A stretch of 64,000 nt of DNA from Oegoconia quadripuncta (lineage: Eukaryota > Arthropoda > Insecta > Lepidoptera > Autostichidae), in the NCBI GenBank assembly GCA_949316235.1, contig OX438743.1, forward strand, positions 16,923,771-16,987,770, written 5' to 3'. Positions 6,423-57,769 of this stretch are shown here, in pieces. Under the pieces are notes generated by a model. The model was not told where the DNA came from, did not search any database, and saw only the letters and a list, made by a program, of their open reading frames with translations. Numbering within the stretch: the first letter of the stretch is position 1; every line of letters starts with the position of its first letter. A program made the translations under genes and the position numbers.

Positions 6423-9400
6423 TTTTGGCGTGCGCGTGCTGTGTGTGTGTGTGTGTGTATATACATGATGTATGTATATATGATGAATGTACGTATGTAT
6501 GTATATTTGTTACCTCTTCACGCCTAAACGGCTGGACAGATTTGGTTGAAATTTGGTTGGTAGCCATATTAGGACCTGGATTAACCTGTAGGCTGGGACC
6601 TGTAGGATGGGACCTGTCAGACAGGTATAATTAGTGGGATTGATTTGGAGTCATAGATTGACGCATTTGGTAGATTTGAATTCTACGCGTACGAGGTGGC
6701 GGGTAACAGCTAGTTATACGGGTAGTTTAAGGAGACACCCAACGAAATGACAGTCGACAGTGCTGCCACTGAAATAAATATCTACGACCATCATCTTCGA
6801 CCACATTGTCACTTTCCATCAAGCGAGATTGTGGTCAAATTCGAATCCAGTCAATCATAAAAAAAAAATTATATATCTCATAAACAAAGCCCTAACAGGG
6901 ATGATTGTCAAACTGAAGTTGATTTAGATTCCGACATTTTGAAATACTGTGACAAGTCAAAACTATAGCAATAAAACATAAACATCGTCAGTCAAACTAA
7001 ACTGCACCTTGACGTTACGTTTTTCACCAGTTTTGGTTCTGTTTATGAGATATATATTATTTACCTGACTAGCAGCACCGTCGAATATCATTTCATAGGG
7101 TACCCCCTTAACATAATGTTTGTTATTACTTAAATGATACTACATGCTTCTTTCTTACTTTTCTGTTTTAATTTTGTGTAGTTTCTCACCATATAACTGG
7201 TCCTTTGATGCAATAACAGATCGTGAACGTAATAGGCGTCAGGCTGAGTACCAGTTGGTAGGTTGGTACCAGTATGATAATATAAACTGTATATGACCGC
7301 ATATGTGGCGTGATATAAGAGCGATAGTGTGGGCATAATAACTAAATTCCTTTGACAAAACAGCAAAAACTGCCGTAGCACTGAACAGCAAAATGTTGCC
7401 ACAACTCAAATTACAAGGAATATCCGTTCGATTTTTATTATTAATTTTGATAAGCAAAAAATAATTGGCTGAATGACGCATACCCTCATTAATTAAAAAT
7501 ATTGGTACTTCTAATCTAGTATTTTGATATTTTACCAGTCATGGCACTTGGTCAATAATTCTGTTTGCTTTTCAATTGTAACAGGACTGTTGTGTTCTAA
7601 GTATAAGGCTCATGCGCCACAGCAAGTGAAACTATTAAGATTGACAAAGTGAAATGCTTGCTGAAATATTGTTTTCGTGTACAATTATATCTGTACTTTG
7701 TGTAATAGCTGTACTCATAACATGGTGCATTATGCCTCGATGGCGTACCTTACAGAATTACATGTGTGTCTGTCGGATTGTATCTGGTGCCTTGCATTTA
7801 GTGATGGGCTATTTATATTACTCTCTCCATCCTCTGATAGTCTCAGAGCGTATGCGGACGATTACAAGGAATTTATTTTTAGCATCGGTTTGTTGGTCTC
7901 TCACCTCCTTGCTAGTGGCTTACACAAAGCTCATTCTTCGGTTCCCTGGAATAGTAAATCATGAGAAGAAAAAAGTTACTTTATTTACATTGTGGACATT
8001 TCTTATAATCGAGCTTATCTGTGATGGCATTGTAGGGTATATATTCGATTTGGATTCCCGAAGTTCACGCAAGGTAAAATTACTGCCTCTGGGTGTGATT
8101 GCCACAGCCAATGTAGCAGTTTTTATTAAAGTGATGAAATCAGCAATGGACGCTTTGAGAAAGAGTATGGGTATCGCTTTGATCTGCGACTCTATTATAC
8201 TTATAGTTGGATTCCTGTTACATGAAGACTCCGACCCAGCGAAGTGGGTTCCAAACTATTGGCTGAAAATGATTATGATGATGGCGTTGTGCTTAAGATT
8301 AATTCCACAATCTCTTATAATATTATACAACAGATCTTCGAGACAACATTGGAAAAGCTACTGTAATCAAATAAAAAATCGACGCCTGAATGTCATTGAA
8401 CTTGGAACTAAATAAATTGGCACTTCATTTTTGATGCTTATTTTCCTATCACGCATTTCAATTTAATTAGCAAATGTTAATGATGATGTTGATTATTAAA
8501 ATAAATACGAATACATAACTCTACTATTTCATAATTGGACGCGTTGTGTACTTCACGTATTTCTTAGCAATGCAAGACCCCACAAAAATAATTTATTCCA
8601 CGGGAGCTTTGCTGTCGACATTTTGCGTCATAGCATTAGTAGCGACGTGGTGCATCTTGCCAAGATGGCGCACATTGCATAACTACATAAGCATAGGTCA
8701 AATCACTGCAGGGACTTTGCACCTGTACGCTGCTAACATGCTATATGGCGTTATTGGAGCAGGCCCATTAAACGCAGATTCACTCGTAAAAATTTGCGGC
8801 TACCTGTTCCTGGCATGCGTGTCTTGTTCACTGTGTGCGTCGATGTTGGCTTATCTGAAGCTGGTGCTGCTCTACACAGGCAAGATAAGCTATGAGAAGA
8901 GAATATCAAGTGCGTTTGTTCTAAGTGTGATCTGCATGACGAAAACCATATCCGATGTGATTACACCATTTTATTATGAAGAATCCACACATAGGTTCTC
9001 AATAAGATTAATTGGTCTACTCGTGCTATTAACTTTGAACTTCTTTTTCTTCATGTCGGTGGCCATGTCTGTGATATCGTGTTGTAGAAGGCGTATGTCG
9101 AGGCGGAATGCACGCCACATTTTTGCTATAATTGGCGTTGCCATTATATGTGATTCTGCACTGATTGCTTATTTATTGTTGATAATATTAAGCAACGGGG
9201 TGGTGCTGTTATTTGCGCAATGTATGCTGTCTCTGCGATTAGTTCCTCAAACAGTATTCCTATTGTTCAACTCTTCATCCAGACAACAGTGGAAGCGATA
9301 TCTCGAAACAAAACAATCTGCTTCAAGTTAATGGATACCTAAATTGTTTATTATATTTCACCGAATACGATTTAACGATGATATCCGGATAGATTGCTAT

Positions 9401-12400: not shown

Positions 12401-15400
12401 ATAAATGCACATAAGTAATTAAATTTAAACATTGGTATAAACTCATGCCTGGGAATCGAACCCGGACCTCCCAAATCGGGAGACCGCGTCTAACCGCTGA
12501 GCACCGACGCTGATACACCAAGTATATATTTATGGCTTATATTTTATTCTTTATTATTCTGTGTAGAATTGCGTCCATAACGTCATTGGAGGCTCCACTG
12601 AAAATTTGCGTAGCAGTATATACCTATGCTACAACTAATGCTGAGCGTACCATCATCAAATTTATTCGAAATTAACTAAATACCAAAAATAAATAGAAAA
12701 ACACCTTTTACAGGCTTAATGCTGGAAGAAGTGGCGCAGCACTATTCATTTACATGCTGTTTACTGGCTAATGACACATTCATGACATTTTGTTAATGTA
12801 TTGTTGTTTATTTTCCAGCTTTAGTAAGCTAAGATACAGGTGAATCTGCCTACTACGAGAATCCGAAAAACTAGTATCATTAATGTTAAACTGGTCTGGA
12901 AAAATAAACAATTTTGTATTTGTAAGCATACTTATGCGTCTTTGTCTACGTATATAACATTTCAATTGTATTTCCTTCAGAGGGTTTACTGAAAGAAATC
13001 TCTTACAAAGATAAGCTCGCGTTTGTGTATGGTAATATATATCCTTTGTTTATTTAAAGTTAAATATATTCGAAACGGTTTAACCGATTTTCATCAAACG
13101 TAGCTATAAGAGCCTGTCCCTTCGTTGAGTCTTTAATATAAAAAAATCGCATTCAAATCGGGCCAGACTTTATTGAGATACATCCGGACAAAGTCTGGAC
13201 ACACACAACGCTGTCAAACACATAACACCCGTCGTCTTTCGTCGGGGATTAAAAGCAAACCTTATCTAGTGTTGGCCAGTGTGAACAGGCTTTTATGGCG
13301 ATACGATTGTCATTAGGGGCACGCCGCCGTGCCTCGTCAATTTACAAATAAACTTCCAATGCCACAAACCCCGACGTAGTAACCTTCGTCGGCCTTCATA
13401 CAGTTAGTCATCGCCTGATGTATAATTAAGATAGATTACTTTACAACGAGCATTTAGTAATCTGACAGATTCTAAAAGCGGACTACCAAGTCGACCGAAT
13501 CCCTATAGGTAATTAAGGCAGCTGATAAAGATAACTCACCACCACTTATAATTATGACGTTTATTTTATTTATTTAAACTTCAACCGCCTCCGTGGCTCA
13601 ATGTAAACAACATTGGGTTTACGATTCGGAGGTCGCGGGTTCGATCCCCAGCGGGGTTGTTTAAGTACTAGGTTTGGTTGGTGGTAGGGCATTTTAAATG
13701 TCCGCCTGGCTAGCTACCACCATCTTGTCATAAAGCAGCAATGCTAATAGCATTGTTGTGTTCCGGTTGTCAGAGATAAGATAGCCAGTCCCCCAAATGT
13801 TGGAGTTTCCGGGTCAGTACGCTTCCACCTTCGACCTCATCTTCACTTAACATCAGGTGTGATTGAGGTCACGTACGAACCCGTCATGCATAAAAAAAAA
13901 ATATTTATCGACTATATTTATAAGTGCCAGTGCTACAATTTATAACTAAGTCATTATTACGAGATAGATAATACAAATAAGTATTAATATTCGCACTACT
14001 AACTGGGCAAAATTCTGTACTGCCACTACAGCTGTAAAGACAGGGGGGGGTATGTTGGGTCCGAACAAATATCATATTCCATGTCAATGCTTTGAGGCAG
14101 GGTTCCTAGAAGTCTAGCCGCGCCGCCACGTTATATGGTCAGACTAAATAGCTGGCCCTAGCTACCGGCGCTCTCTGATCACCCGATTCGGCATGGTGTT
14201 GCTACGTCAACTTTTTTAAGAGCTTCCAAGTAATGAACACTAATTCTACCGTCTTAAATATCTAATTCTAATCACGGCGAAACGGATAAACGGATTTAGA
14301 TGAAATTTGGTATCGACAGCCAGTAAACATCCCACTGCAGGGATATAGACCTTCCCTCGTATATGAGAATGGAGAATGGACCATAGTCCACCACGCTGGC
14401 CCAATGCCAGATTTGGTAAATAGGGTAGAATATATCTGGATTAAGACAAGATATTTTTTAGTATAAAGTGAGTAGTTCCCGCGGGATAAACGAATTAAAC
14501 ATATTCGCGATACAGTTTTTGTAACGCATACGAAGCCGCGGACGGAAAGCTAGTTGATCTATATATCACAATATTTTTGGGATGCCGAGTCAAGAAGAAA
14601 ACGGTAACATCAATTACCGGCCTAAGTATAAAGTACCTAATGGCATTAGCTATAGTCCAAATATTTAACCTTTGGGGCGTTACCGATGCCTGCCAGCAGC
14701 GAATGCATTATAGCCTGTTTACCCTTTTGATGGGTCACGAACGACCCCAACTAAAGGCGATTTTTTCCAGATTTTACGGTACTATGTTATCTTAATGACC
14801 ATTGAAAATGAAGGTATATTCGGATAGCGTGCACATGCTACTTCTTTCGGGATAAATCAAGTTCGGCTGAATTCGACCTAATTACATTTTTAATTTTTGG
14901 GCTGTCCGAGTGGCCTATTCTACGAACACCAATAGAACAGTTACTCTACGTAGTATTTTTTAACAATCTCTCCCATTCAAAGTGACGATATGTTTGAGAA
15001 TAAAACACTGCAATTCCAATATAACAGCCTATTCGGTTGGGAACTGGAGATCTGTTAATGACAATAGAATCAGAGAAAAATTTGACGATATATTATGTCT
15101 TTAAGTTTTCTTTCCCAAACCATTTATTGCACTAAGGCATTTATTATTAATAAACCGTTCTCAAGATTGATATGACGTTAGCTGACGCTTGAGAATCTGT
15201 TGCATATTAAAACAGTTTCAAAAAAATAGTCTTGAAACTGAGGCCCTGAATGCTAAATGAGATATTTCCGAATACATACTTGCACGCCCTTTAAACCTTC
15301 CTTTCAACATTTTTCCGGTTATCAAACTTTGTCATATCATTTCTTGGTAAGGGTTACAGCGGTTCGAAGCATTTGCGATAATCCATCGATGTTTTGTGAG

Positions 15401-30400: not shown

Positions 30401-33400
30401 TCCGAACAGCATTGGGTCGCTCGCGCGTATGAGCGCGGCTGCTGCTCGCTCGGCGACATTCACCTTTCCGCGCGCCCCGCCACTGTCCCCGCCCCGCGCC
30501 CTCGCGCTAGCACCGCGCAGCGCGTAGTAACGGCCCGCGCTCACTCGCTAGCATCGCAGCGCGTGGTATATAATTATACAACCTTACGCACTCGTAATAA
30601 GTACGAATACGCACGTAGGTACGTTTTTTGCATTAATAAATAATTTAATACACGTGTTTTCATCACCGGAATACCCATTTTTTGCTCGATTTGGCAGGGG
30701 CACTACCATGCGCCTATATTTATATGGGACTAGCTTAAACCCGCGGCTTCGCACGCAATAATAATAATTGCCGTAAAATAAAATATTGAAAAATTTAATT
30801 AACTGAAGACTTGGCTGTATGGGCTTAATTTTCTTTGCTGTCTTTTCTAGATTTTTTAGTTTTTCCTTGATTCATACACCAAACACTACTTATATTCCAA
30901 ATTTGAAGCTTCTAGGTCTGCTAGAAGTGCCTTAGAATTTTGATGATCGGTGAGTCAGTGACTGACAAAATTAAGAAATTTGACCCCTTATAATTCTTAA
31001 AATACTGGTTCAAATTGAATGAAATTTTAAATATACGTGTCTTTACAATGCCTGCATAGTTACTGAAAATTTCAGTCTTCTATTTTTATCCACAACGAAG
31101 TTACAGGGGGTCGAAAATGGTCTGAGTTGCTTCGAGAAAAGGATGGTACGGCCGTGACGCTTTTTTGCTCGACTTGGTGGGGGCACGGCCGTGCCCCCAG
31201 ATGAAATGAAAAATAAAACATAGATAATAAATTGTTCAAAGATAAGTTTTTTATTTAAACTAACTTGTGTAAAGTGCGCTGATGCACACAAAACAGCAGA
31301 CTGTCCCAAGAAGGATCGCAACAGCCCAGCAAAATGCGCTTTATGCCTTGGTAACCATCCTGCAAACTACAGGGGTTGTGATCTCTATAAAGAAATAATG
31401 AACCGAAAATATAACAAAAGAAACAACACTGACACTTAAAAACCATTACGGAAAAGTAGTGAGGAGATAAGGCATGCGAATAACACTGAAAATGACAGAA
31501 CTAAAGAAATAAATACAACCAACCAAGCAACATATGCAGATGTTACCAAAAATAAAAACCAACGCGTAAGTGTTGAGCCAACCCAAGTAGTGCAAGACCT
31601 ACTTATAAAACAGTCTGAAAAGATTGACCTACTCTTACAGCATATAGGCAACCTAATGGGCCTTATGACTAAACTCATAGACCAACTATTAAAGTGATTG
31701 GACTACGGATTGGAACTTGGAACGTAAACGGACTTGCTCCAAATAGAGACGAAGTGGAAGTACTGTTGAGTATGCATAGACTAGATGTGCTTCTGATATC
31801 TGAGACACACTTCACTAATAGAAGTGCCATAAGGATACCACAATATAATATCTACACCACAAACCATCCCCATGGAACGGCTCATGGAGGATCTGCGATT
31901 ATCATTAAATCTAACATGAAGCATCACCAGCTGCCTTGTTATAAAACGGAACATATACAGGCGACAACAATTTTTGTTGAGGACAAAAATGGTGGTTTTA
32001 GTGTGTCCGCGGTATACTGTCCTCCAAAACACAACATCAAGGAATACCAATTCACTCACTACTTTGCAACCCTCGGAAGACGTTTTATAGCTGGTGGCGA
32101 CTGGAATGCAAAGCATACATTCTGGGGATCACGACTCATACATACTAGAGGAAGAGAGATGAAGTTATGTATTGATAAGAATAGATTCGTGACTCTGTCA
32201 CAAGCTGAACCAACACACTGGCCAAGTGATCCAAAGAGACTACCGGACGTGATTGATTTCTTTGTTGCGGGAGGTCTCCCAAGACTAAACTTTCATGTTG
32301 AGACTTGCTTGGATGGCTCATCGGATCGTGTACCAGTGATTCTGACGGCTGGTGCAACTGCACTGCATCATGACAGTCAACACCGACTATGCAATAACCT
32401 GACTGACTGGAACTCCTTCCGAGAAATGGTTGAGGAAGGACTGGAGTTGAAGGTGGCTTTAAAGACATCGGATGATATCGATAGAGCCGCAAGAGAATTC
32501 ATGGAAGCAGTGCAGTGTGCCTGCTGGCATTGTACCCCTGTAAAAAAAACCTGCAAAATCAAGAAACAGCATACCATGGCAGATACGTGAGAAAATTAGG
32601 GAAAAACGAAGATTGCGACGGGTTTGGCACATTAGTCGAGAGACGATAAAGCAGCCCTAAACAAGGCCATCAAAGAAGTCAGAGAGGTTATTGCTGCTGC
32701 TAATAGTGCAACACTAAACGCTCAACTGGAATCTTTAACAGCGACTAGAGCTACAGACTATTCATTGTGGAAAAGTACACGGAGCATGAATCGACCTCAA
32801 ACCACAAAACCTCCAATAAAGATGGAAAACAATGACTGGGCTAGAACAAGTAAGCAAAAAGCTGAAGTGTTTGCGGAACACCTAGCAAAGGTATTTGTGC
32901 CTAACTCGGCCGAAACAGACGTGGATGACTCAGATGTGGAACTCATTCTGGATCAGCCATACCAGATGGAACTGCCTATCAAACCGATTACTCCAAGAGA
33001 AATAGTAAGGCACATCCAAAACCTCGGTAATGGGAAGGCCCCTGGTTTCGATATCATTACAAAAGAAATACTGAAAGAGCTGCCAGGGAAGGCTGTGACG
33101 TATTTGACCCTTCTGTTCAACGGTATACTCAGGGTGGGACATTATCCATCTCTGTGGAAGGTGTCACAAATAGTAATGATACACAAAGAAGGAAAACCAG
33201 CGCACGAGGTAACCTCATACAGACCTATAAGCCTGCTTCCCATAGTATCAAAACTCTTTGAAAAATTACTGCTCCATAGAATGTCACCAGCCCTAAGAGA
33301 CAGGGCAGTAATCTCAGACCACCAGTTCGGCTTTCGACAGAAACACGCAACCGTTGAACAAGTCCACAGAGTTTGCGGTGAGGTGAGGAGGTCCCTAGAG

Positions 33401-36400
33401 AACAAGGAATACTGTGCCTCTACTTTCCTGGCATATACAGCAAGCATTCGATAGGGTATGGCACATGGGGCTCCTGTGCAAAATCAAACAATCATTGCCA
33501 CACACATTTTATGAGATCCTACAGTCGTACCTGACGGACAGAATCTTCCAAGTTAAGGAAAGCGACTCGGCATCCAGGTTCTACGAAATTAGAGCCGGCG
33601 TACCCCAGGGTTCAGTGCTGGGACCAGTGTTATATACAATATACACAGCAGACCTACCACAGCCGCTGACTGTAATGACTGCAACATATGCCGACGACAC
33701 GGCCATTCTGGCGAGCCATAGTGATCCCGAAATAGCATCTAACATTCTTCAACTAAGCTTGGATGAAATAGGCAAATGGTTGAAGAAATGGAGAATTAAA
33801 GCTAGTGCATCCAAATCTGTCCAGGTGACGTTTACGCTACGGAAGGGCAACTGTCCTCCTGTTAAACTTGACGAACAAGAACTTCCTCATAGAGACTCGG
33901 TGAAATATCTGGGAATCCACCTTGACCGAAGACTCACCTGGAAAACTCATATTCAGGCTAAAAGGGATCAGATCAACATAAAATACAGAAACTTGTCAGT
34001 ACAAGTTTTAATATAAACTTTAATATAAATAAAATAAGCCAGTGCTTATAGGCAGGAATTCAGTTCTTTCCACTGATAACAAATTGTTAGTGTATAGAGC
34101 CATACTAAAGCCAGTCTGGACGTATGGCATTCAGTTGTGGGACTCTGCATGCACATCCAATCTCAACATCCTACAGAGAATGCAAAATAGCATCTTAAAA
34201 AACATCTCAGATGCACCGTGGTACACAAGGATCGCAGAGGTGCATGACATACTAAAAATTAACACCGTGCAGCAGGAGATAAAGCTGTCTGCCGAACGCT
34301 ATAGGATCAGACTGGACAGACATCCAAATCCGTTGGCTGTGCCACTGACAAAGCCTAGCCACCAAAGACGGCTTAAGAGACTGGCAATCAGCGACCTATG
34401 CGGTTGACTATTGTTCTGAGGAAGAGATTTTCTCACTAGAGAAAACACTCTACAACGCCACTCCCCCCACACATCTGCTTATAGTTTAGCAACTGATCGC
34501 AGATTGCCTAAAGAAAAAAAAATAATTGGTAAACAGTCTTTTCCCTGAAATTAAAATTCTAATTATTTGAGATAATATTGCAGTTACTCATTCTTCTTTA
34601 TTGTTAATCTTTAACATTTAGAACTGTTCCTATCCTAATTCTAAACAAGTTAAAGAAATGTAGCTTTTGTTAATTGTGCAATAAAGAGTATTTGAATTGA
34701 ATTGAATTGAAAAGTCTCTTCAATGACGCGGCGCGGGGGAGACGCCTCAAGCGCCCGCGCGCCTTGGCCCCCGGTATTCGAACTCGCGCGGTTAATCACG
34801 CTGGCGCCAAAATCAATGTTTTAACCAACGTCTTAATAGTCAATCCATACAAAATTTCGATTGTATTAATGTGTATACTATACTTATTCCGTTGAAAATA
34901 AACTGTTTGATGTACTAGAACTTTACTTTTGTTATAGCTGAAACGACAGTGCAAATCAAATATAGACTAAGAAAAATAGGTTTAACCATTATCTGTAAAT
35001 GTTTACTGTTGAAACCATAAATAGTTCATGCGACCGGTATACCATAATCTACTACAAGCTAAATGGTTGAAGTGACAACATCTAGCATTTCAAGTACCAA
35101 GCTTAATGTATGAACCGACACTGGACATAAATTTGACAAAGAGGCTAGTTGTATTAAGCGACACTGGATATGAATTTAAATAAGAACCTAATTGTATTAA
35201 GCGACAATGGATAAGAATTTAACTAAGAGGCTAATTGCATGAAGCGACATTTCTATATATTTATAAGGTCAGGCTAAATGCTTGAACGTACACTGCCTGT
35301 AAATTGTTGCTCCAGGAAAAAAGGTTTAAACGACTATGTAGTATTTGGTAGTGAGCTTAAGTACACAAGTCTTAAATTTGACAATATTTTGTGTCGGTCC
35401 ATACATTGCAGTGCAAAATAGGCCAAAAAAATGCGGTTGTATTAAGCGACATTTTTATGCTCCGATCGTCACCTAACTGAGCTCAAACGACGCAGAAAAA
35501 TTCGCTGATTCCAAATATATATACAGGGCGTCCCAAAGTTATGGGACATGAAGGGGAAGTACCTTAAATATCGTAGATAGTGAATTTTGCTCAAAGAAGA
35601 CTTTATGTTATTTTTAAAAGTTAGTAATTCTGCATTCATAGATTTTCTAAAAATTATTTGCTTCGGCTGGGAATCGAACCGTCTCAAATGTGAAAAAAAA
35701 AACACCCTACTTTTATGATGCCAATCGAAAGAATAGCTAAAAAATAATAACTCTGCCTAAGTAACATAGTATTTTAAAAGAAAGGAACAACGTGAAATTA
35801 ATCATTTTAATCAAATAAAAAACATACATGAAACTGCCGTAGTCAATTAAGTAGGTATTTTTTTGTAAATTAATTAATTAAATGCTCAAAATGTGATCCC
35901 TCTTGTCTTACGCAAATCGCCAATCTTTTAATGAGCCCGCTGCCTGTTGATTTTCTAATCATTTTATGGTGAACACTCGATGTGATATGGCACAATTCTG
36001 TTTGCAACTCGCCTACGTTCTCGTATCGCTTTTTGTATAGCATATCTTTCACGTATCCCCAAAAGAAGAAATCTAATGGTGTGAGGTCCGGGGATCTGGC
36101 CGGCCATCTAATCGGTCCATTTGTACCAATCCATGTAGGAAAACATTCATTTAGAAAATCTGCTGCTCTCCGACTATTATGAGCCGGAGCTCCATCTTGT
36201 TGGAAAATTAAGTTTTCTTGCTCCGCCGCGGAATGGTTTCTTATCTTATCCCTTAAAATTTGAAGTATTCCTAAATACTTTTCTGTGTTCAAGGTTCCTT
36301 GGTAAAAATGGATTAAGAAAACCCGGTTTTTTAAAAGTCCGCACCAACAGTTGAGTGAAAAACGCACTTGGTTATTAGTTTCAGTCACTCGTAGGGGATT

Positions 36401-39400
36401 TTCTTTAGACCAAATACGATTATTGTTGCGGTTATACATACCGTTATTGCTAAAGTTAGTTTCTTCTGTCCAAATAATATTATCCAAAAAATTTGGATCT
36501 TCGAGCAATCGTGCCTGGATATCAAGACAGAAATTTTTTCTCCTTTCTGTATCGCCCGGAAGTAATTTTTGAACCAATCGTCCTTCAACATAACTCTTAA
36601 AACCGTGTTTTTTTAATACACGGTGTATTTTACTTTTTGAAACTCCAATTTCATGTTCTCCTTCTCTCACCGATGCTTTCGGAAAAGCCGAAAAGTAAAT
36701 TAAAATACCAAGTTCTTCGTCGTTGATCGTATGGTTTTCTTGCTGTGGTTCTCTTGGGCGTTTATCGAAACGTCCCAGAGTTTTCAAATTGTTCACAAGC
36801 CTTTTCAAAACTTTACGAGACGGTATTTGTCTATCAGGATATTTTACGCCATACCACCGCAAACTTCTAGAGATATCTTTATCGTTCAAAAAATATGCTT
36901 CCATTAGATCAAAACTTACTTGATATGCCATGTTCGCAATAAATTAACACAATAACACTTGTGTAAGTGAATTGAGACTAAACAGATCAATATCCGAAAA
37001 ACAAACGCTCGCACATACTGTTCCATTTTCAAATTTAAGAACAACATTTAAAAATATCACTTCTTTTTAAAATATCTTAAAAAGTATGCATTCAAACAAA
37101 CGCTGTCATAAACTGTTCCATTTTCAAATTATAAATTATTTATTTTTGTTTTTAATTTGCCTTCTGTCTAGCTTACAGAGGACGTATTGAAATACAAGTT
37201 TTATCATTTCATCTACACGTGCACTTATAATAAGGAAAACTATGTTAGTACCTATTTTATGAAGTGGGTACTTATTTACGAATAATCAATGCTATCTTTG
37301 GAATGATAATATCGCTACTTTTCGAACGTCGTCGGCAATAAATAACTTTCTTGAAATTTGACTCAATCATTTTATGTTGTTCCTTTCTTTTAAAATACTA
37401 TGTTACTTAGGCAGAGTTATTATTTTTTAGCTATTCTTTCGATTGGCATCATAAAAGTAGGGTGTTTTTTTTTCACATTTAAGTCGGTTCGATTCCCAGC
37501 CGAAGCAAGTAATTTTTAGAAAATCTATGAATGCAGAATTACTAACTTTTAAAAATAACATAAAGTCTTCTTTGAGCAAAATTCACTATCTACAATATTT
37601 AAGGTACTTCCCCTTCATGTCCCATAACTTTGGGACGCCCTGTATAATAATAATAATAAATAAATATTTCGGACACTTACACCAATCATCTAGTCCCAAA
37701 CTAAGCAAGCTTGTACTATGGATACTAGATAACGGATAAACATACATAAATATTTATATAAACATCCATGACTCAGGAATAAATGTTCATATTCATCACA
37801 CAAACATTTACCCGTCGCGGGATTCGAACCCGCAACCGTTGGTTTCGCTGACAGGGTCACTATCCACTACACCAATCGGTCGTCATATAAAAGTCTAATA
37901 GCAAAAAAATGGCGGTTAATTCAAATAGCCCGGAACCCGTCGATATAAACACCCATGACTGAAACGACTTTTACTTTAGACTTCATAAACTTACGAAACT
38001 CTTTATACCTATGATAATGTCTAATATGATAAATAAATCTAATCTAAAGGTATGTATAAATATCCACTATAGACAATTGTCTGATTATTCAATCATCATG
38101 CGGACCTGTAAATGTGCAGTGGGATATTCCTTATTGGCTGCCCAAAATGATATGTGCATCAAACTTACCTCTATAGAGGAATTATAAGGATATTCTTCAT
38201 TAAACCTAAGAGACCAATAAAACGATGCTATTTCTATAGACTTTTGAGCTTCATCTATCAAATCTAGCCACACATTCTTAGTGGGTAGATGTGTAGCATT
38301 CGGAGGGTACATGTGACCCTCTGGAATACTTTCAACTAATGATAACCTGAAACAAGTGATGTCATTAGTTCAGAAATACACTATAGATATATAGATGAGA
38401 TGAACTGTAGGAATCCAACCCAAATGTTTGCAGTACAATGGTACAATTCCTTCCACAATATTTGGTCAGATGATGTAATATCTGTTAGATTATGGTCAGT
38501 GCTGTAGTAAAAGTTTAATGACCCGTCCACTCACACATGACTATAAGAACGACACCATCATATTTCTCTGCAGCGGACCTTACATAATCATCATTAACAA
38601 AGCATCATTATAAAAGTCCAAAGCTGTAACTAAGTCTCTCCATTAGTGCATGTTCAGTTCAAAGTGTAAAAGTCCCTGTAAAAACTTTAGATTTAAAAAA
38701 AATCTACTTATTGGGCAAGTGGGTTGGTGAGTACACATTTTTTTAGGAACTACAGCTGAACCAATAACGCTTTTGCTAATGTCTCGCTCAAAATCCCTTT
38801 GTCGTTTTTTAAGATACCGATGTGACGGGATGAGTTGTAAATTGCACATTGATTTTTAAAAATCCTGCAATTAAAATGACAATAGAATTTTATTTGTTCT
38901 TAGACCCAGGAATTTCATCATCAAGTTAATTCATTAGTAAACAAGAAAATTCTCACCTACACTCATCTGAGCAAAGTATAGTGACGGGCGCGTTGGCCGC
39001 ATTCGACTGTAAATTAGGATGATCCAATAACGGTACAAGCACAACTAGGACTATTAACACTATCACTATCGAAACAGGAATGCATGATGGTCGACACCAA
39101 ATGCTGCGTTTCTTCCTCCTGTGAAAAATAATTCCAGGTAAAGTAACCTGCATTAGGTAGTTGACAAAACTGTCTCACTATATAACATCAATAAAGTAGT
39201 TTTCGAGATATTACTGTTTCCATTGACTTATATATCACCGCGTATATATAAATCAATGACTGTTTCGCATTTTGTCAGTTGTCATCCGAAATGAAGATCT
39301 CATTGAGAATAGTCCTAAAAATAGGCTCAGTAGTTTTCGAGACATTAATGGGATATGATGACAGAAGTTAGATTTGATCAACTTACAAAGTAAGAGGACT

Positions 39401-46241: not shown

Positions 46242-48346
46242 AAACGGGGGACACTCCGGGGGTCCGAGCGTTTACAGCTTAAAATGGCCCAGGAAAGATC
46301 CATAACGCAAAAGGAGCGAAGCGTCAGGACATCAAGCAGCACTAAGTCCACCATAATAAAAGCCTTAAATGCAATTGTGCAGAGCGTGATAAGAAATAAA
46401 ACGAAAAATAAAAGCGCGGAGAGACAGCTGGTAGCCGTTGAGAATACCGGTAAAACCCACAAGATACAGCCGCCGAAACTCCAGAACAAACGAACCAGAG
46501 CGGATATGGGACAAGTGAGCCCGCCCAACCTCAGACCCGCGACCGTGCCGAGGGACCATATGATCAACGCCTTCCTTGAGTTTCTCGCAGTCACGAAAGC
46601 GACGAGGAAAGTCAATGAACAAACCTGCAAAAACATCCTGCAACCCTATCACCTAGGCACAGAAGGACTGCTTCAAGTGAGACTCGAGGAGGCGGAAGCC
46701 GCCATATATAACAACGACACTTCCCAAGTTTTAAAGGGGAAGATGGGTCAAAATATGGTGGCATACAACGCGACGTATGGTTTTGTAACGCTGGACGTGG
46801 ATGAGACAAGGAGAATGGGCATGCCCAAGTTTAGAACCCCTGCAAGCGACCCCATAGTAGTTACCGCCCGGTGCACGAGGGTAGAGCTGGAGGACAAGAT
46901 TCTCAGTATGGCCGATACCATATCGGGAGTTCACGACGCCGAGAAAGCCTGGGAGGTACCACTTATTAAATGGGTCAACGGAGTTCCTGGGTGTGGAAAG
47001 ACTATTTGGGTCGTACACCACTTCAAAGTGGAGAAAGACATAGTAGTCACCACCACAACCGAAGCGGCTAAAGATCTCAGGGAAAGACTGACGAACCGGA
47101 TGGGAGCAGACGCCAAAACCAAAGTGCGCACAATGGCCTCAGTCCTCGTAAATGGAATCAGAGACTCCGAGAAGAGGACAGACGGAAGGCTCATAGTCGA
47201 CGAGGCCCTAATGAACCACTTTGGTGCCATAGTTATGGCCTCACGTCTGACCGACGCCAGGGAGATAATTCTCATCGGCGACATCAACCAGCTGCCGTAC
47301 ATTGACAGGGAAAATTTATTTAAGATGCAGTACAGTCGGCCAAACCTGGTAGCAACCATCAGCCATGAGCTGCTATGCACGCACAGGAATCCGCTGGATG
47401 TAGCATACGCCCTCAACGAAATCTATAGTGGCATATACTCTTCCAGTTCGCGGGTGCATTCCTTGAGGCTGGAACGGTTTACGGGCGCAGAGATACCCAC
47501 CACCGCCCCGAATACTCTCTTCCTGGTTTATACCCAGGCGGAAAAAGAGATCCTCATAAATCAAGGATACGGGACGGGTATAGGGTCACGCGTTCTGACC
47601 ATACACGAGGCTCAGGGACTGACATACGAGACGGTAAGGATCGTGCGTACCGCGACAGCCAGACTGCAGTTGCACAATAGCGTACAGCATGCTGTCGTGG
47701 CAGTGTCGCGTCACTCTGTCAGCTGTGTTTACTACGCGGATGACAGGGATGATGCGATGGGCAGGTTTATGCAGCGGGCAACGGCTGCTTCGACGAAGAG
47801 CATTTTAGATTACAATCTGAAAATGGCAATACGCCATCGTGACACAGCGGTCGTGGAAAAGCTGAAAAGGTTTGGAGAGGGAGGAAGTCAGAACCTCCAA
47901 TAACGAGGCACAGTCCATGACAAGCATACAAGATTACACAAGATTATTCTATCACTGCCATTGTACTCACTCCCATAGTTAAAAAACGCACCTCCCCTTG
48001 AATTGTAATCAGTTGTAATCATCATAGAAATAAACAAATATTTAAAATTTTACATACCATAATTATATCGAGAATAGGAATAAGTAAAAATAATAATAAT
48101 AAGAATATGACAAAGGGAAGATATGTGTGTATATGTATGTGTATATATATATGTATGTATATATGCATACATAAAGAACAAGAACTCACTGTTTTAGATT
48201 TAAGCATAGTCATAGTCTTTAGAGTATAAAATGTAAAAAGAGACAAGTTAATTTATAAATTATATTTTTGTAAACAAGAGCACGGACCATGTGTCTGTGG
48301 AGATTTAAATTACTTTAAAAAAAAAAAAAAAAAAAAACGGGGGACA
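46242..48346 (+). mobile_element. Retroposed unit carrying a virus-type helicase, 13-bp target duplications and poly(A)
   Basis: AAACGGGGGACAC is present at 46242-46254 and again at 48334-48346. The insert, 46255-48333, ends in a poly(A) run from about 48317. This is the signature of LINE-driven target-primed retroposition. The insert has a 29-bp leader, a 1620-bp open frame and a 413-bp 3' UTR with no obvious AATAAA near the tail. It could be a 5'-truncated LINE whose ORF2 carries a C-terminal helicase, since virus-like helicase domains on insect R1-type LINEs have been reported. Alternatively it is a retrocopy of a free helicase mRNA. The frame is open through the leader, which fits truncation. 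Confidence 0.88.
46284..47903 (+). CDS. Virus-type superfamily 1 RNA helicase domain protein, 539 aa
   Basis: A complete frame from ATG at 46284 to TAA. The first 230 residues are a basic region followed by an unassigned domain. The C-terminal 300 carry all SF1 viral (alphavirus-like) helicase blocks in order: GVPGCGKT (Walker A, 233-240), VDEA (Walker B, 305-308), GDINQLP (332-338), CTHRNP (365-370), HEAQG (441-445) and VAVSRH (472-477). This family unwinds RNA with NTP in positive-strand RNA virus replicases of plants and insects. Here no capping-enzyme, polymerase or capsid part is attached, so it is a captured domain and not a virus. The frame is undamaged, so the insertion is young or the product is maintained. 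It stays open to 46215 upstream, but that part lies outside the insert. Confidence 0.9.
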   Translation: MAQERSITQKERSVRTSSSTKSTIIKALNAIVQSVIRNKTKNKSAERQLVAVENTGKTHKIQPPKLQNKRTRADMGQVSPPNLRPATVPRDHMINAFLEFLAVTKATRKVNEQTCKNILQPYHLGTEGLLQVRLEEAEAAIYNNDTSQVLKGKMGQNMVAYNATYGFVTLDVDETRRMGMPKFRTPASDPIVVTARCTRVELEDKILSMADTISGVHDAEKAWEVPLIKWVNGVPGCGKTIWVVHHFKVEKDIVVTTTTEAAKDLRERLTNRMGADAKTKVRTMASVLVNGIRDSEKRTDGRLIVDEALMNHFGAIVMASRLTDAREIILIGDINQLPYIDRENLFKMQYSRPNLVATISHELLCTHRNPLDVAYALNEIYSGIYSSSSRVHSLRLERFTGAEIPTTAPNTLFLVYTQAEKEILINQGYGTGIGSRVLTIHEAQGLTYETVRIVRTATARLQLHNSVQHAVVAVSRHSVSCVYYADDRDDAMGRFMQRATAASTKSILDYNLKMAIRHRDTAVVEKLKRFGEGGSQNLQ

Positions 48347-48550
48347 CATACGAGTATATCTCACAATGCCTGAACAGGGAAAAGCAAGAATGTCAACCTG
48401 TAGTTGATTTAGATTGCAATATTTTAAAGTAATGCAAACAGTGTTAATTGTGCTTCTCAGATAACCAACAACGTTTTTCATTGGCCACCGTGATTCGTTT
48501 TAATGATGGTGTCTTGTCTAGTTTCAGTACTTTTAAACATCGGAATCTAA

Positions 48551-48692
48551 GGCCCGTATTAATAAATCGTTCTTGAGATTGAGATCGCGTCTCAGTCTCA
48601 AGACTATTTTTCTGATGCTGTTTTAATAAGCTACAGATTCTCAAGCGTCATGAGGCCATGTCAATGTTGAGAACGGTTTATTAATACGGGCC
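48551..48692. mobile_element. MITE, ends GGCCCGTATTAATAAA, TAA target duplication
   Basis: 142 bp with inverted ends 'ggcccgtattaataaatcg' and the complement ending at 48692, flanked by TAA on both sides. Another copy is at about 57510-57642. The 3-bp TAA duplication suggests PIF/Harbinger type. Confidence 0.85.
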
Positions 48693-48939
48693 TAAATCAA
48701 CTACCTACAGCTTGACATTCTTGTTTTTTCCTTGTTTAAAAGGTTTTATTTTGAGTGGTAGCATCGTCGATTTTCATTTCATTTCATATAGTTTCATTTC
48801 AACTGGGTCCATATAGTATACTTATATATGCACTTGGACCTGTATATGTACATTTTAGTATTCCGTAGTAAAATTGAAAAAACGGAACACTTATCGCCTC
48901 ACCCTGGTATGTCTGCGAGCTGCGGATAGACAGACAGTT

Positions 48940-56880: not shown

Positions 56881-57509
56881 GCCAAGGTTGGCAATAATTT
56901 CATTAGGCTGTTATTAAACGGGTTGGAACTAATCCCTGTTCTAAGCCCCGAGCTTAAGAAGAAGAAGATCGGTCACTAGTGAAAGTGTCAATACAAAATG
57001 AATCTATATCTACCTGTGCATCATATATTATGACGTTACAGACAGGTGACAGGGGTTAGTATAGATCCACACATGTTCAACCATTTCTGGTGTGCAAAAA
57101 AATATAGTACATGTATATGCTACATTACGTTATTATAATTATAATCTCTTATTATTATTATCTCTTTATTTATTACTGTTGTTAAATAAATCAATTTCAT
57201 TATAACCTATAAATCATATCAGGTATTACTACACCCTTCAATCGGTCATGCAACTAATACCTACATGCGATAATCGGCTGTCTGTAGTCAGTCTGATGGA
57301 GCTTCAGTCAATACGAGTACCTTCACAAGTCAAACGTCGATAACAACTTCCTTATGCTCAACAGTTGGTTGTTCACGAAAATCACGGCATGCATTGTATT
57401 GAAAACAATTGATGTGACATTCTGTACCATTTATCTATACACCATTATAATACAACTTCTATTGTGTCTGGTACCTGCACGTGAACGGGTAATAAAGTGG
57501 AATGACTAA

Positions 57510-57642
57510 GGGCCGGTTAATAAATCGACCTTTAGACTGAGATCGCGTCTCAGTCTCTATACAATTTTTTTTGATACTGTTTGATATTGCAACAGATTCT
57601 CAAGGTCATCTCAATCTTAAGAACGGTTTATTAATACGGGTC
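57510..57642. mobile_element. MITE, second copy of the 48551-48692 family
   Basis: 'gttaataaatcgacctttag', 'gagatcgcgtctcagtctc', and right end 'ggtttattaatacgggtc', flanked by TAA. Confidence 0.8.
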
Positions 57643-57769
57643 TAAGTGTGGAATAAGTAGATTAATATCCAAAAGGTACCTTCTACTATACTCTTATCTC
57701 TAGTGAGTCATCTTCATTATCAAATCAATCACAGGACGTCCACTGTTGAAAATAGTGTATTAAATTAGG

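What the first reader, a model, noticed from the sequence alone, without database searches (positions are those of the whole stretch)
46242..48346. Intact virus-type SF1 helicase carried by a retroposed unit with perfect 13-bp target duplications
A 539-codon frame with every alphavirus-like helicase motif sits between AAACGGGGGACAC repeats and a poly(A) run. No viral capping or polymerase domain is present. The frame is undamaged, so either the insertion is very young, or the helicase is useful to a retrotransposon or the host. Known precedent: virus-like helicase domains joined to R1-type LINEs in insects. The open question is whether this is a 5'-truncated LINE or a self-contained helicase retroposon.
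Basis: partly seen in the sequence, partly recalled or inferred. Interest (0 to 1): 0.82.

Follow-up and report, generated by a model that had tools for sequence, protein, structure and literature searches.

The report
Young, 5'-truncated moth helicase-LINE copy
The finding is the tail end of a known kind of moth and butterfly jumping gene that long ago picked up a virus helicase; this copy lost its front part when it landed, and its reading frame is most likely intact because it landed recently, not because the insect needs it.

Summary
In detail: an open virus-type SF1 helicase frame (46287-47903), a 21-A tail and 13-bp repeats (46242-46254, 48335-48347). The frame is colinear with the last quarter of ~2000-residue endonuclease-RT-RNase H-helicase ORF2 proteins; all 51 long LINE relatives tested align, and the coding match runs upstream of the ATG to the insert's first codons. 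In the window's genome 24 places of its family were read: no two 5' starts coincide, 20 share the 3' end, and 12 of 21 examined have flanking repeats of 11-16 bp against 0 of 420 mismatched pairs. The window copy has 5 private changes in 2057 sites, all non-synonymous: young and without sign of constraint. No RT-bearing copy of this family was found. A sister family (60% identical) has the complete ORF2 and sits in telomeric repeats at contig ends, which PMC6338049 says helicase LINEs do not do. Both families share a 3'-terminal hairpin. The kind was described in 2015-2017; the window copy itself is ordinary.

The parts
46242..46254 (.). left target-site duplication AAACGGGGGACAC
46255..46259 (+). 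five extra bases (TCCGG) at the 5' junction, not shared with the longer family copies
   Evidence: matches of L009, L011 and L013 start at insert base 6
46260..47903 (+). C-terminal part of LINE ORF2, open to the stop; the ATG at 46287 is an internal codon
   Evidence: RGSERLQ aligns with the [ST]GSERLQ-type motif of longer ORF2 proteins
46509..47819 (+). region with the fold of the tobamovirus helicase, N-terminal domain plus SF1 core (model residues 75-511)
46974..47735 (+). PF01443 SF1 helicase core (residues 230-483)
47904..48316 (+). LINE 3' UTR, 28% G+C
48281..48300 (+). 3'-terminal hairpin CACGGAC-CATGT-GTCTGTG(G), shared with the telomeric sister family with another loop
48317..48337 (+). 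poly(A) tail, 21 A, the last three also readable as the duplication
48335..48347 (.). right target-site duplication AAACGGGGGACAC

Best explanation
This is a young, 5'-truncated copy of a lepidopteran LINE whose ORF2 ends in a virus-derived SF1 helicase. A LINE reverse transcriptase nicked the genome at a TTT/AAA-type site, primed on the poly(A) tail of a LINE RNA, copied about the last 2.06 kb and stopped inside ORF2; repair left a 10-13 bp duplication and a few extra bases at the 5' joint. Shown: colinearity with longer and full-length ORF2 proteins, a ladder of 5' ends with one common 3' end, own duplications of sister copies, low divergence, private changes all non-synonymous. Inferred: the nick, the priming step and which LINE protein did the copying. 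The copy lacks endonuclease, RT and RNase H and so should not move by itself. The helicase is kept intact by selection on active source elements, where it probably helps the LINE (unwinding during reverse transcription, or suppression of small-RNA silencing; both proposed in PMC4686597 and PMC5563155), not by selection on this copy.
For: All 51 LINE proteins of 1400 residues or more returned align with the frame over their C-terminal part, and 44 of 51 carry the motif xGS[EQ][RK] in the stretch tested, at or next to the point where the insert begins (these proteins were found through their helicase, so it is the upstream colinearity that counts). By the precomputed domains, 44 of the 51 hold endonuclease (PF14529), RT, RNase H and helicase in one chain; confirmed by hmmscan for P0068 and for the genome's own L015. 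24 genomic places of the family: 21 different 5' starts inside the insert and 3 that reach further upstream; 20 of 24 end within 1 base of the same 3' end. 12 of 21 copies have flanking exact repeats of 11-16 bp, against 0 of 420 mismatched pairs. Ten of the younger copies differ from the window at 0.4-0.9% of sites. In the helicase tree the window lies among the Lepidoptera LINE rows (support 93/89, drawn as an open fork).
Against: No copy of this family with an RT was found in the assembly (84 matches; 80 of 153 candidates scored), and the follow-up search with the upstream spacer did not complete. The RT class of this very family is therefore inferred from relatives. 9 of 21 copies show no repeat of 11 bp or more. 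Over all copies, changes seen in one copy only are 40 non-synonymous, 1 stop and 23 synonymous, fewer non-synonymous ones than the roughly 3:1 expected without selection; I take part of these to predate insertion, but it is not shown. RNA data were not available.
Confidence: 0.95

Rival explanations
1. A self-contained helicase retroposon: a defined unit with its own 5' end and start codon, moved in trans by a LINE.
For: The insert has an ATG 32 bases in, a 3' UTR and a poly(A) tail; in this assembly the family was found only as copies without RT.
Against: The coding match extends upstream of the ATG and continues in the longer copies L009 and L011; the copies have no common 5' end.
Confidence: 0.02
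2. A host-domesticated helicase gene kept by selection.
For: Intact frame; only 1 of 162 strongly conserved positions departs, the lowest share of 14 rows.
Against: Youth explains intactness: at 0.5% divergence the chance of no stop is 0.75, or 0.38 if frameshifts are added at an assumed rate, and the private divergence is 0.24%. All 5 private changes are non-synonymous; one lies in the codon of the single conserved position lost, one in the codon after the Walker A GKT. Five changes are few, so this excludes selection only weakly by itself.
Confidence: 0.02
3. A direct insertion of an RNA-virus gene (endogenous viral element).
For: Fold and sequence are those of tobamovirus and virga-like helicases.
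Against: 61-66% identity to the cores of four LINE helicases measured (P0001, P0046, P0047, P0050) but 27-35% to the three rows that I took as virus-like (P0054, P0056, P0059; only P0059 carries another viral domain); the frame is colinear with LINE ORF2; no confirmed relative in IMG/VR contigs under two strict peptide patterns.
Confidence: 0.01

Closest known systems
TRAS/R1-clade LINEs with C-terminal SF1 helicase in Lepidoptera (Lazareva et al. 2015, PMC4686597; Morozov et al. 2017, PMC5563155)
   Same: Helicase at the C-terminus of ORF2 behind a long spacer; conserved helicase motifs; wide spread in Lepidoptera; closest viral helicases are virga-like.
   Different: This copy is truncated before the RT; its family is dispersed and no RT-bearing copy of it was found in the assembly.
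Telomere-specific TRAS elements (Lepidoptera)
   Same: The sister family in this genome stands at poly(A)-(CCTAA)n junctions near contig ends, as TRAS does, and carries the helicase.
   Different: The window's family: 0 of 28 places within 200 kb of a contig end, no telomeric repeats in the window.
Jockey-type LINEs with SF1 helicase in ORF1 (Hemiptera, Orthoptera; PMC5563155)
   Same: A virus helicase captured by a LINE.
   Different: There it is in ORF1, before the RT; here it is the end of ORF2.
Tobamovirus replicase helicase (3vkw)
   Different: 23% identity in the aligned part; no methyltransferase or polymerase here.

Membership tests
Lepidopteran SF1-helicase LINE | SF1 viral-type helicase domain | tested here: met
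   PF01443 E=1.3e-27, tobamovirus helicase chains E=2.4e-28
Lepidopteran SF1-helicase LINE | Helicase continuous with ORF2, behind RNase H and spacer | tested here: met
   colinear with 51 of 51 long proteins; the longest family copy found, L009, extends into the spacer
Lepidopteran SF1-helicase LINE | RT in the same element | tested here: inconclusive
   absent from this truncated copy and from the copies of its family that were found; present in the sister family and other species
Lepidopteran SF1-helicase LINE | LINE-type insertion: poly(A), target-site duplication, 5' truncation | tested here: met
TRAS (telomere-specific) | Insertion into (TTAGG)n | tested here: not met
   0 of 28 family places within 200 kb of a contig end; no telomeric repeat in the window. 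Sister family: met, 6 of 6 junctions printed
TRAS (telomere-specific) | RT sequence in the TRAS branch of R1 | not tested
   reported for helicase LINEs in PMC4686597 (parts 1-2 read); no RT known for the window's family
Self-contained helicase retroposon | Common 5' end among copies | tested here: not met
Domesticated host gene | Purifying selection on this copy | tested here: inconclusive
   5 of 5 private changes non-synonymous, so no sign of it, but the number is small
Endogenous RNA virus element | Closest relatives viral | tested here: not met

The most novel reading that the evidence does not exclude
One moth or butterfly genome holds two helicase-LINE families with the same 3'-terminal RNA hairpin: a full-length one that lives in telomeric repeats and a dispersed one known only as truncated pieces. 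The dispersed pieces may come from a lineage that lost telomere targeting, or may be copied in trans by the telomeric family's proteins through the shared hairpin, so that the virus helicase is a working part of a LINE that inserts at chromosome ends.
Probability: 0.3. Interest if true: 0.5.

Novelty: new member of a known kind. Interest (0 to 1): 0.3.

Why it matters
The window copy settles its own question: an intact viral-looking gene between perfect duplications can be plain recent LINE debris. More useful is what the genome shows around it: helicase-bearing LINEs can be telomere residents, against the statement in PMC6338049 that they are not found near (TTAGG)n. That bears on what the captured viral helicase is for, since it is then part of an element inserting at chromosome ends.

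Tried and rejected
Virus contigs: one scan of IMG/VR with alignment A1 gave 29 pattern matches and no confirmed relative. Further copies of the insert inside the window: none; copies of the joined empty site: none spanning the junction. Telomeric repeats of two or more units in the window: none. RNA-seq and population data: not available here.

Considered and dropped: host gene, virus insertion, helicase-only retroposon (see rivals). Pairwise dN/dS against the window (23 copies): for the ten copies that I pooled as young (L005, L006, L008, L009, L010, L011, L019, L020, L021, L026; L027, about as close, was not pooled) my sum is 49 non-synonymous changes in about 8511 sites and 8 synonymous in about 2613, a ratio above 1; but the pairs share the window's own changes, so only the private count is used. 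Single ratios run from 0 (L027, L028) to 2.47 (L006), and four pairs have no synonymous change. For more diverged copies the ratio is below 1 (L012 0.43, L025 0.38, L024 0.32, L023 0.40, L022 0.19, L029 0.63, L030 0.52, L031 0.10, L032 0.44, L033 0.44), as expected if the source lineage was under selection before insertion. Sites where one copy alone differs: 40 non-synonymous, 23 synonymous, 1 stop (L012 and L025 left out of that count and). Changed after the filing check: confidence from 0.96 to 0.95 because the stricter duplication count with its control is 12 of 21 rather than 16 of 21; and 'purifying selection' in the membership test from not met to inconclusive.

Full report

What it is. 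One search found 45 relatives; those shown with a species name are Lepidoptera (the taxonomy is my own knowledge). One search, started from the longer relative P0018, started from P0047, gave longer proteins. In one search all 51 proteins of 1400 residues or more (from; the virus-like P0110 was left out) align with the window frame in their C-terminal part, in the roughly 2000-residue ones from about residue 1400-1540 on. They were found through their helicase, so an alignment as such was expected; the point is the colinear match upstream. In 44 of 51 the motif xGS[EQ][RK] stands in the stretch tested, at or next to the point where the insert begins; it lines up with the window's RGSERLQ, ten codons before its ATG and in the same frame. 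The window's first residue, R, differs from the S/T of relatives, and longer genomic copies match from base 46260 on, so the joint lies there and five bases are extra. By the precomputed domains, 44 of the 51 hold endonuclease, RT, RNase H and helicase in one chain. Domain scans of P0068 and of the genome's own copy L015 confirm this. This is a LINE ORF2, and the insert is its last quarter plus 3' UTR and poly(A).

Own genome. The genome search answered once: 623 Mb in 45 contigs, 84 matches, 80 of 153 candidates scored. Places with 82% identity or more (the window's family, here A): 28, the window included. Places with 60-68% (family B and fragments): 36. Ten others. I read 24 of the 28 A places. 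In one search 21 of them start at different points inside the insert (by BLAST alignment; L029 and L030 are one base apart but in different flanks) and three (L009, L011, L013) reach further upstream; 20 of 24 end within one base of the same 3' end. For 21 of the 24 (not L012, L013, L022) the flanks were compared: 12 have an exact shared word of 11-16 bp, against 0 of 420 mismatched pairs of flanks; four more have 8-9 bp, which 27 of 420 mismatched pairs also reach (8 or more); five (L008, L020, L025, L027, L033) have less. The longest copy, L009, begins 507 bases upstream of the window's homology start, inside the ORF2 spacer, with a frame break. No A copy with an RT turned up.

Age and selection. 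Ten of the younger copies differ from the window at 0.38-0.94% of aligned sites, and 5 of 2057 sites covered by three or more other copies are private to the window (0.24%). All five are non-synonymous. With about three quarters of random changes expected to be so, five of five is compatible with no selection and gives no sign of constraint, but is a small number. One (46885) falls in codon 210 of the frame from 46257, the only one of 162 strongly conserved positions where the window departs; another (47005) lies in the codon after the Walker A GKT. At 0.5% divergence the chance of keeping the frame free of stops is 0.75 (0.38 with an assumed frameshift rate), so an intact frame is what youth predicts. 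At a recalled butterfly mutation rate near 3e-9 per site and generation, 0.24% is of the order of a million generations; this is rough. More diverged copies show dN/dS of 0.10-0.63 against the window, as expected if the active source lineage is under selection.

Sister family at telomeres. Of 34 family-B places with a known distance, 30 lie within 200 kb of a contig end; leaving out four rows on short or unmeasured contigs (C24 twice, C38, C42) it is 26 of 30. All 21 near-complete ones (the 60% rows) lie within 157 kb, 19 of 19 without C24 and C38. For A it is 0 of 28. In six of six junctions printed, the poly(A) abuts (CCTAA)n (L014, L015, L018; L034-L036); L016 has a telomeric array just behind its 3' hairpin. 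L014, L015 and L018 each hold one stop-free frame of 2023 codons aligned to residues 1-2014 of the 2022 of P0068. PMC6338049 (passages read) states that helicase-bearing TRAS cannot be found near (TTAGG)n repeats, citing other work; this genome shows otherwise. Five full-text searches listed no paper whose title or abstract start reports telomeric helicase LINEs; only the listings and the passages named below were seen, so it may still be in print.

Shared hairpin. A and B differ strongly (67% DNA identity over 1413 aligned bases of the coding part; in the 3' UTR only short matches), yet both end with CACGGAC-loop-GTCTGTGG 16-20 bases before the poly(A), loop CATGT in A and AAAAA in B, folding to a 7-bp stem. 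Exact forms are present in 15 of 24 A places (three of the nine others lack that end) and in 7 of 7 B loci read; none in 50 mononucleotide shuffles of the window. That some LINEs need a 3' stem-loop for recognition by their protein is stated in the abstract start of PMC5135761, and PMC4176376 is on the same subject (both seen in the listing only). I infer the same role here.

Placement. In a tree of 46 helicase cores the window lies among the Lepidoptera LINE rows, apart from the three rows that I took as virus-like, with support 93/89, below the tree tool's mark for firm support; those three branches are very long, and the tool warns about such rows. Papers: PMC4686597 (parts 1-2 of 4 and passages), PMC5563155 (parts 1-3 of 7 and passages), PMC6338049, PMC5803895 and PMC12036569 (passages). 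The first two describe this kind of element in Lepidoptera. The 2017 paper reports, of the 2015 work, a weak but detectable silencing-suppressor activity of a Plutella LINE helicase in leaves; the 2015 text itself calls the test not unequivocal. This is the main lead on function.

Verdict. A known kind, as a truncated young copy; the retroposition is real, and nothing points to a host gene. The side finding about telomeres and the shared hairpin is the part worth following.

Noticed in passing
L014, L015, L016, L018, L034-L036 (own genome): A helicase-bearing LINE family, full ORF2 in the copies read through, inserted at poly(A)-(CCTAA)n junctions near contig ends, against the statement in PMC6338049.
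   Followed up: partly
48281-48300 and L015:7541-7560: 3'-terminal hairpin with identical stem and different loop in two helicase-LINE families.
   Followed up: partly
31694-34016: Another LINE: endonuclease frame (31694-32590) and RT in two overlapping frames (32765-33454, 33414-34016), i.e. frameshifted; no helicase found there.
   Followed up: no
35870-36931 (-): Open 353-aa transposase-like frame (DUF4817, weak DDE_3 and Tc3-type HTH matches), possibly mariner/Tc1-like.
   Followed up: no
7654-8415 and 8546-9331 (+): Two neighbouring frames of 253 and 261 aa that look by eye like related multi-pass membrane proteins; no Pfam family above cut-off.
   Followed up: partly
48550-48693, 57499-57645, 15145-15242: Inverted-repeat sequence in the right flank with further copies in the window, perhaps a MITE.
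   Followed up: no
L016:7816-9882 and L017:5894-8860: Distant LINE frames (25-29% to P0068), no match to the helicase part, near contig ends; possibly other telomeric LINEs.
   Followed up: no
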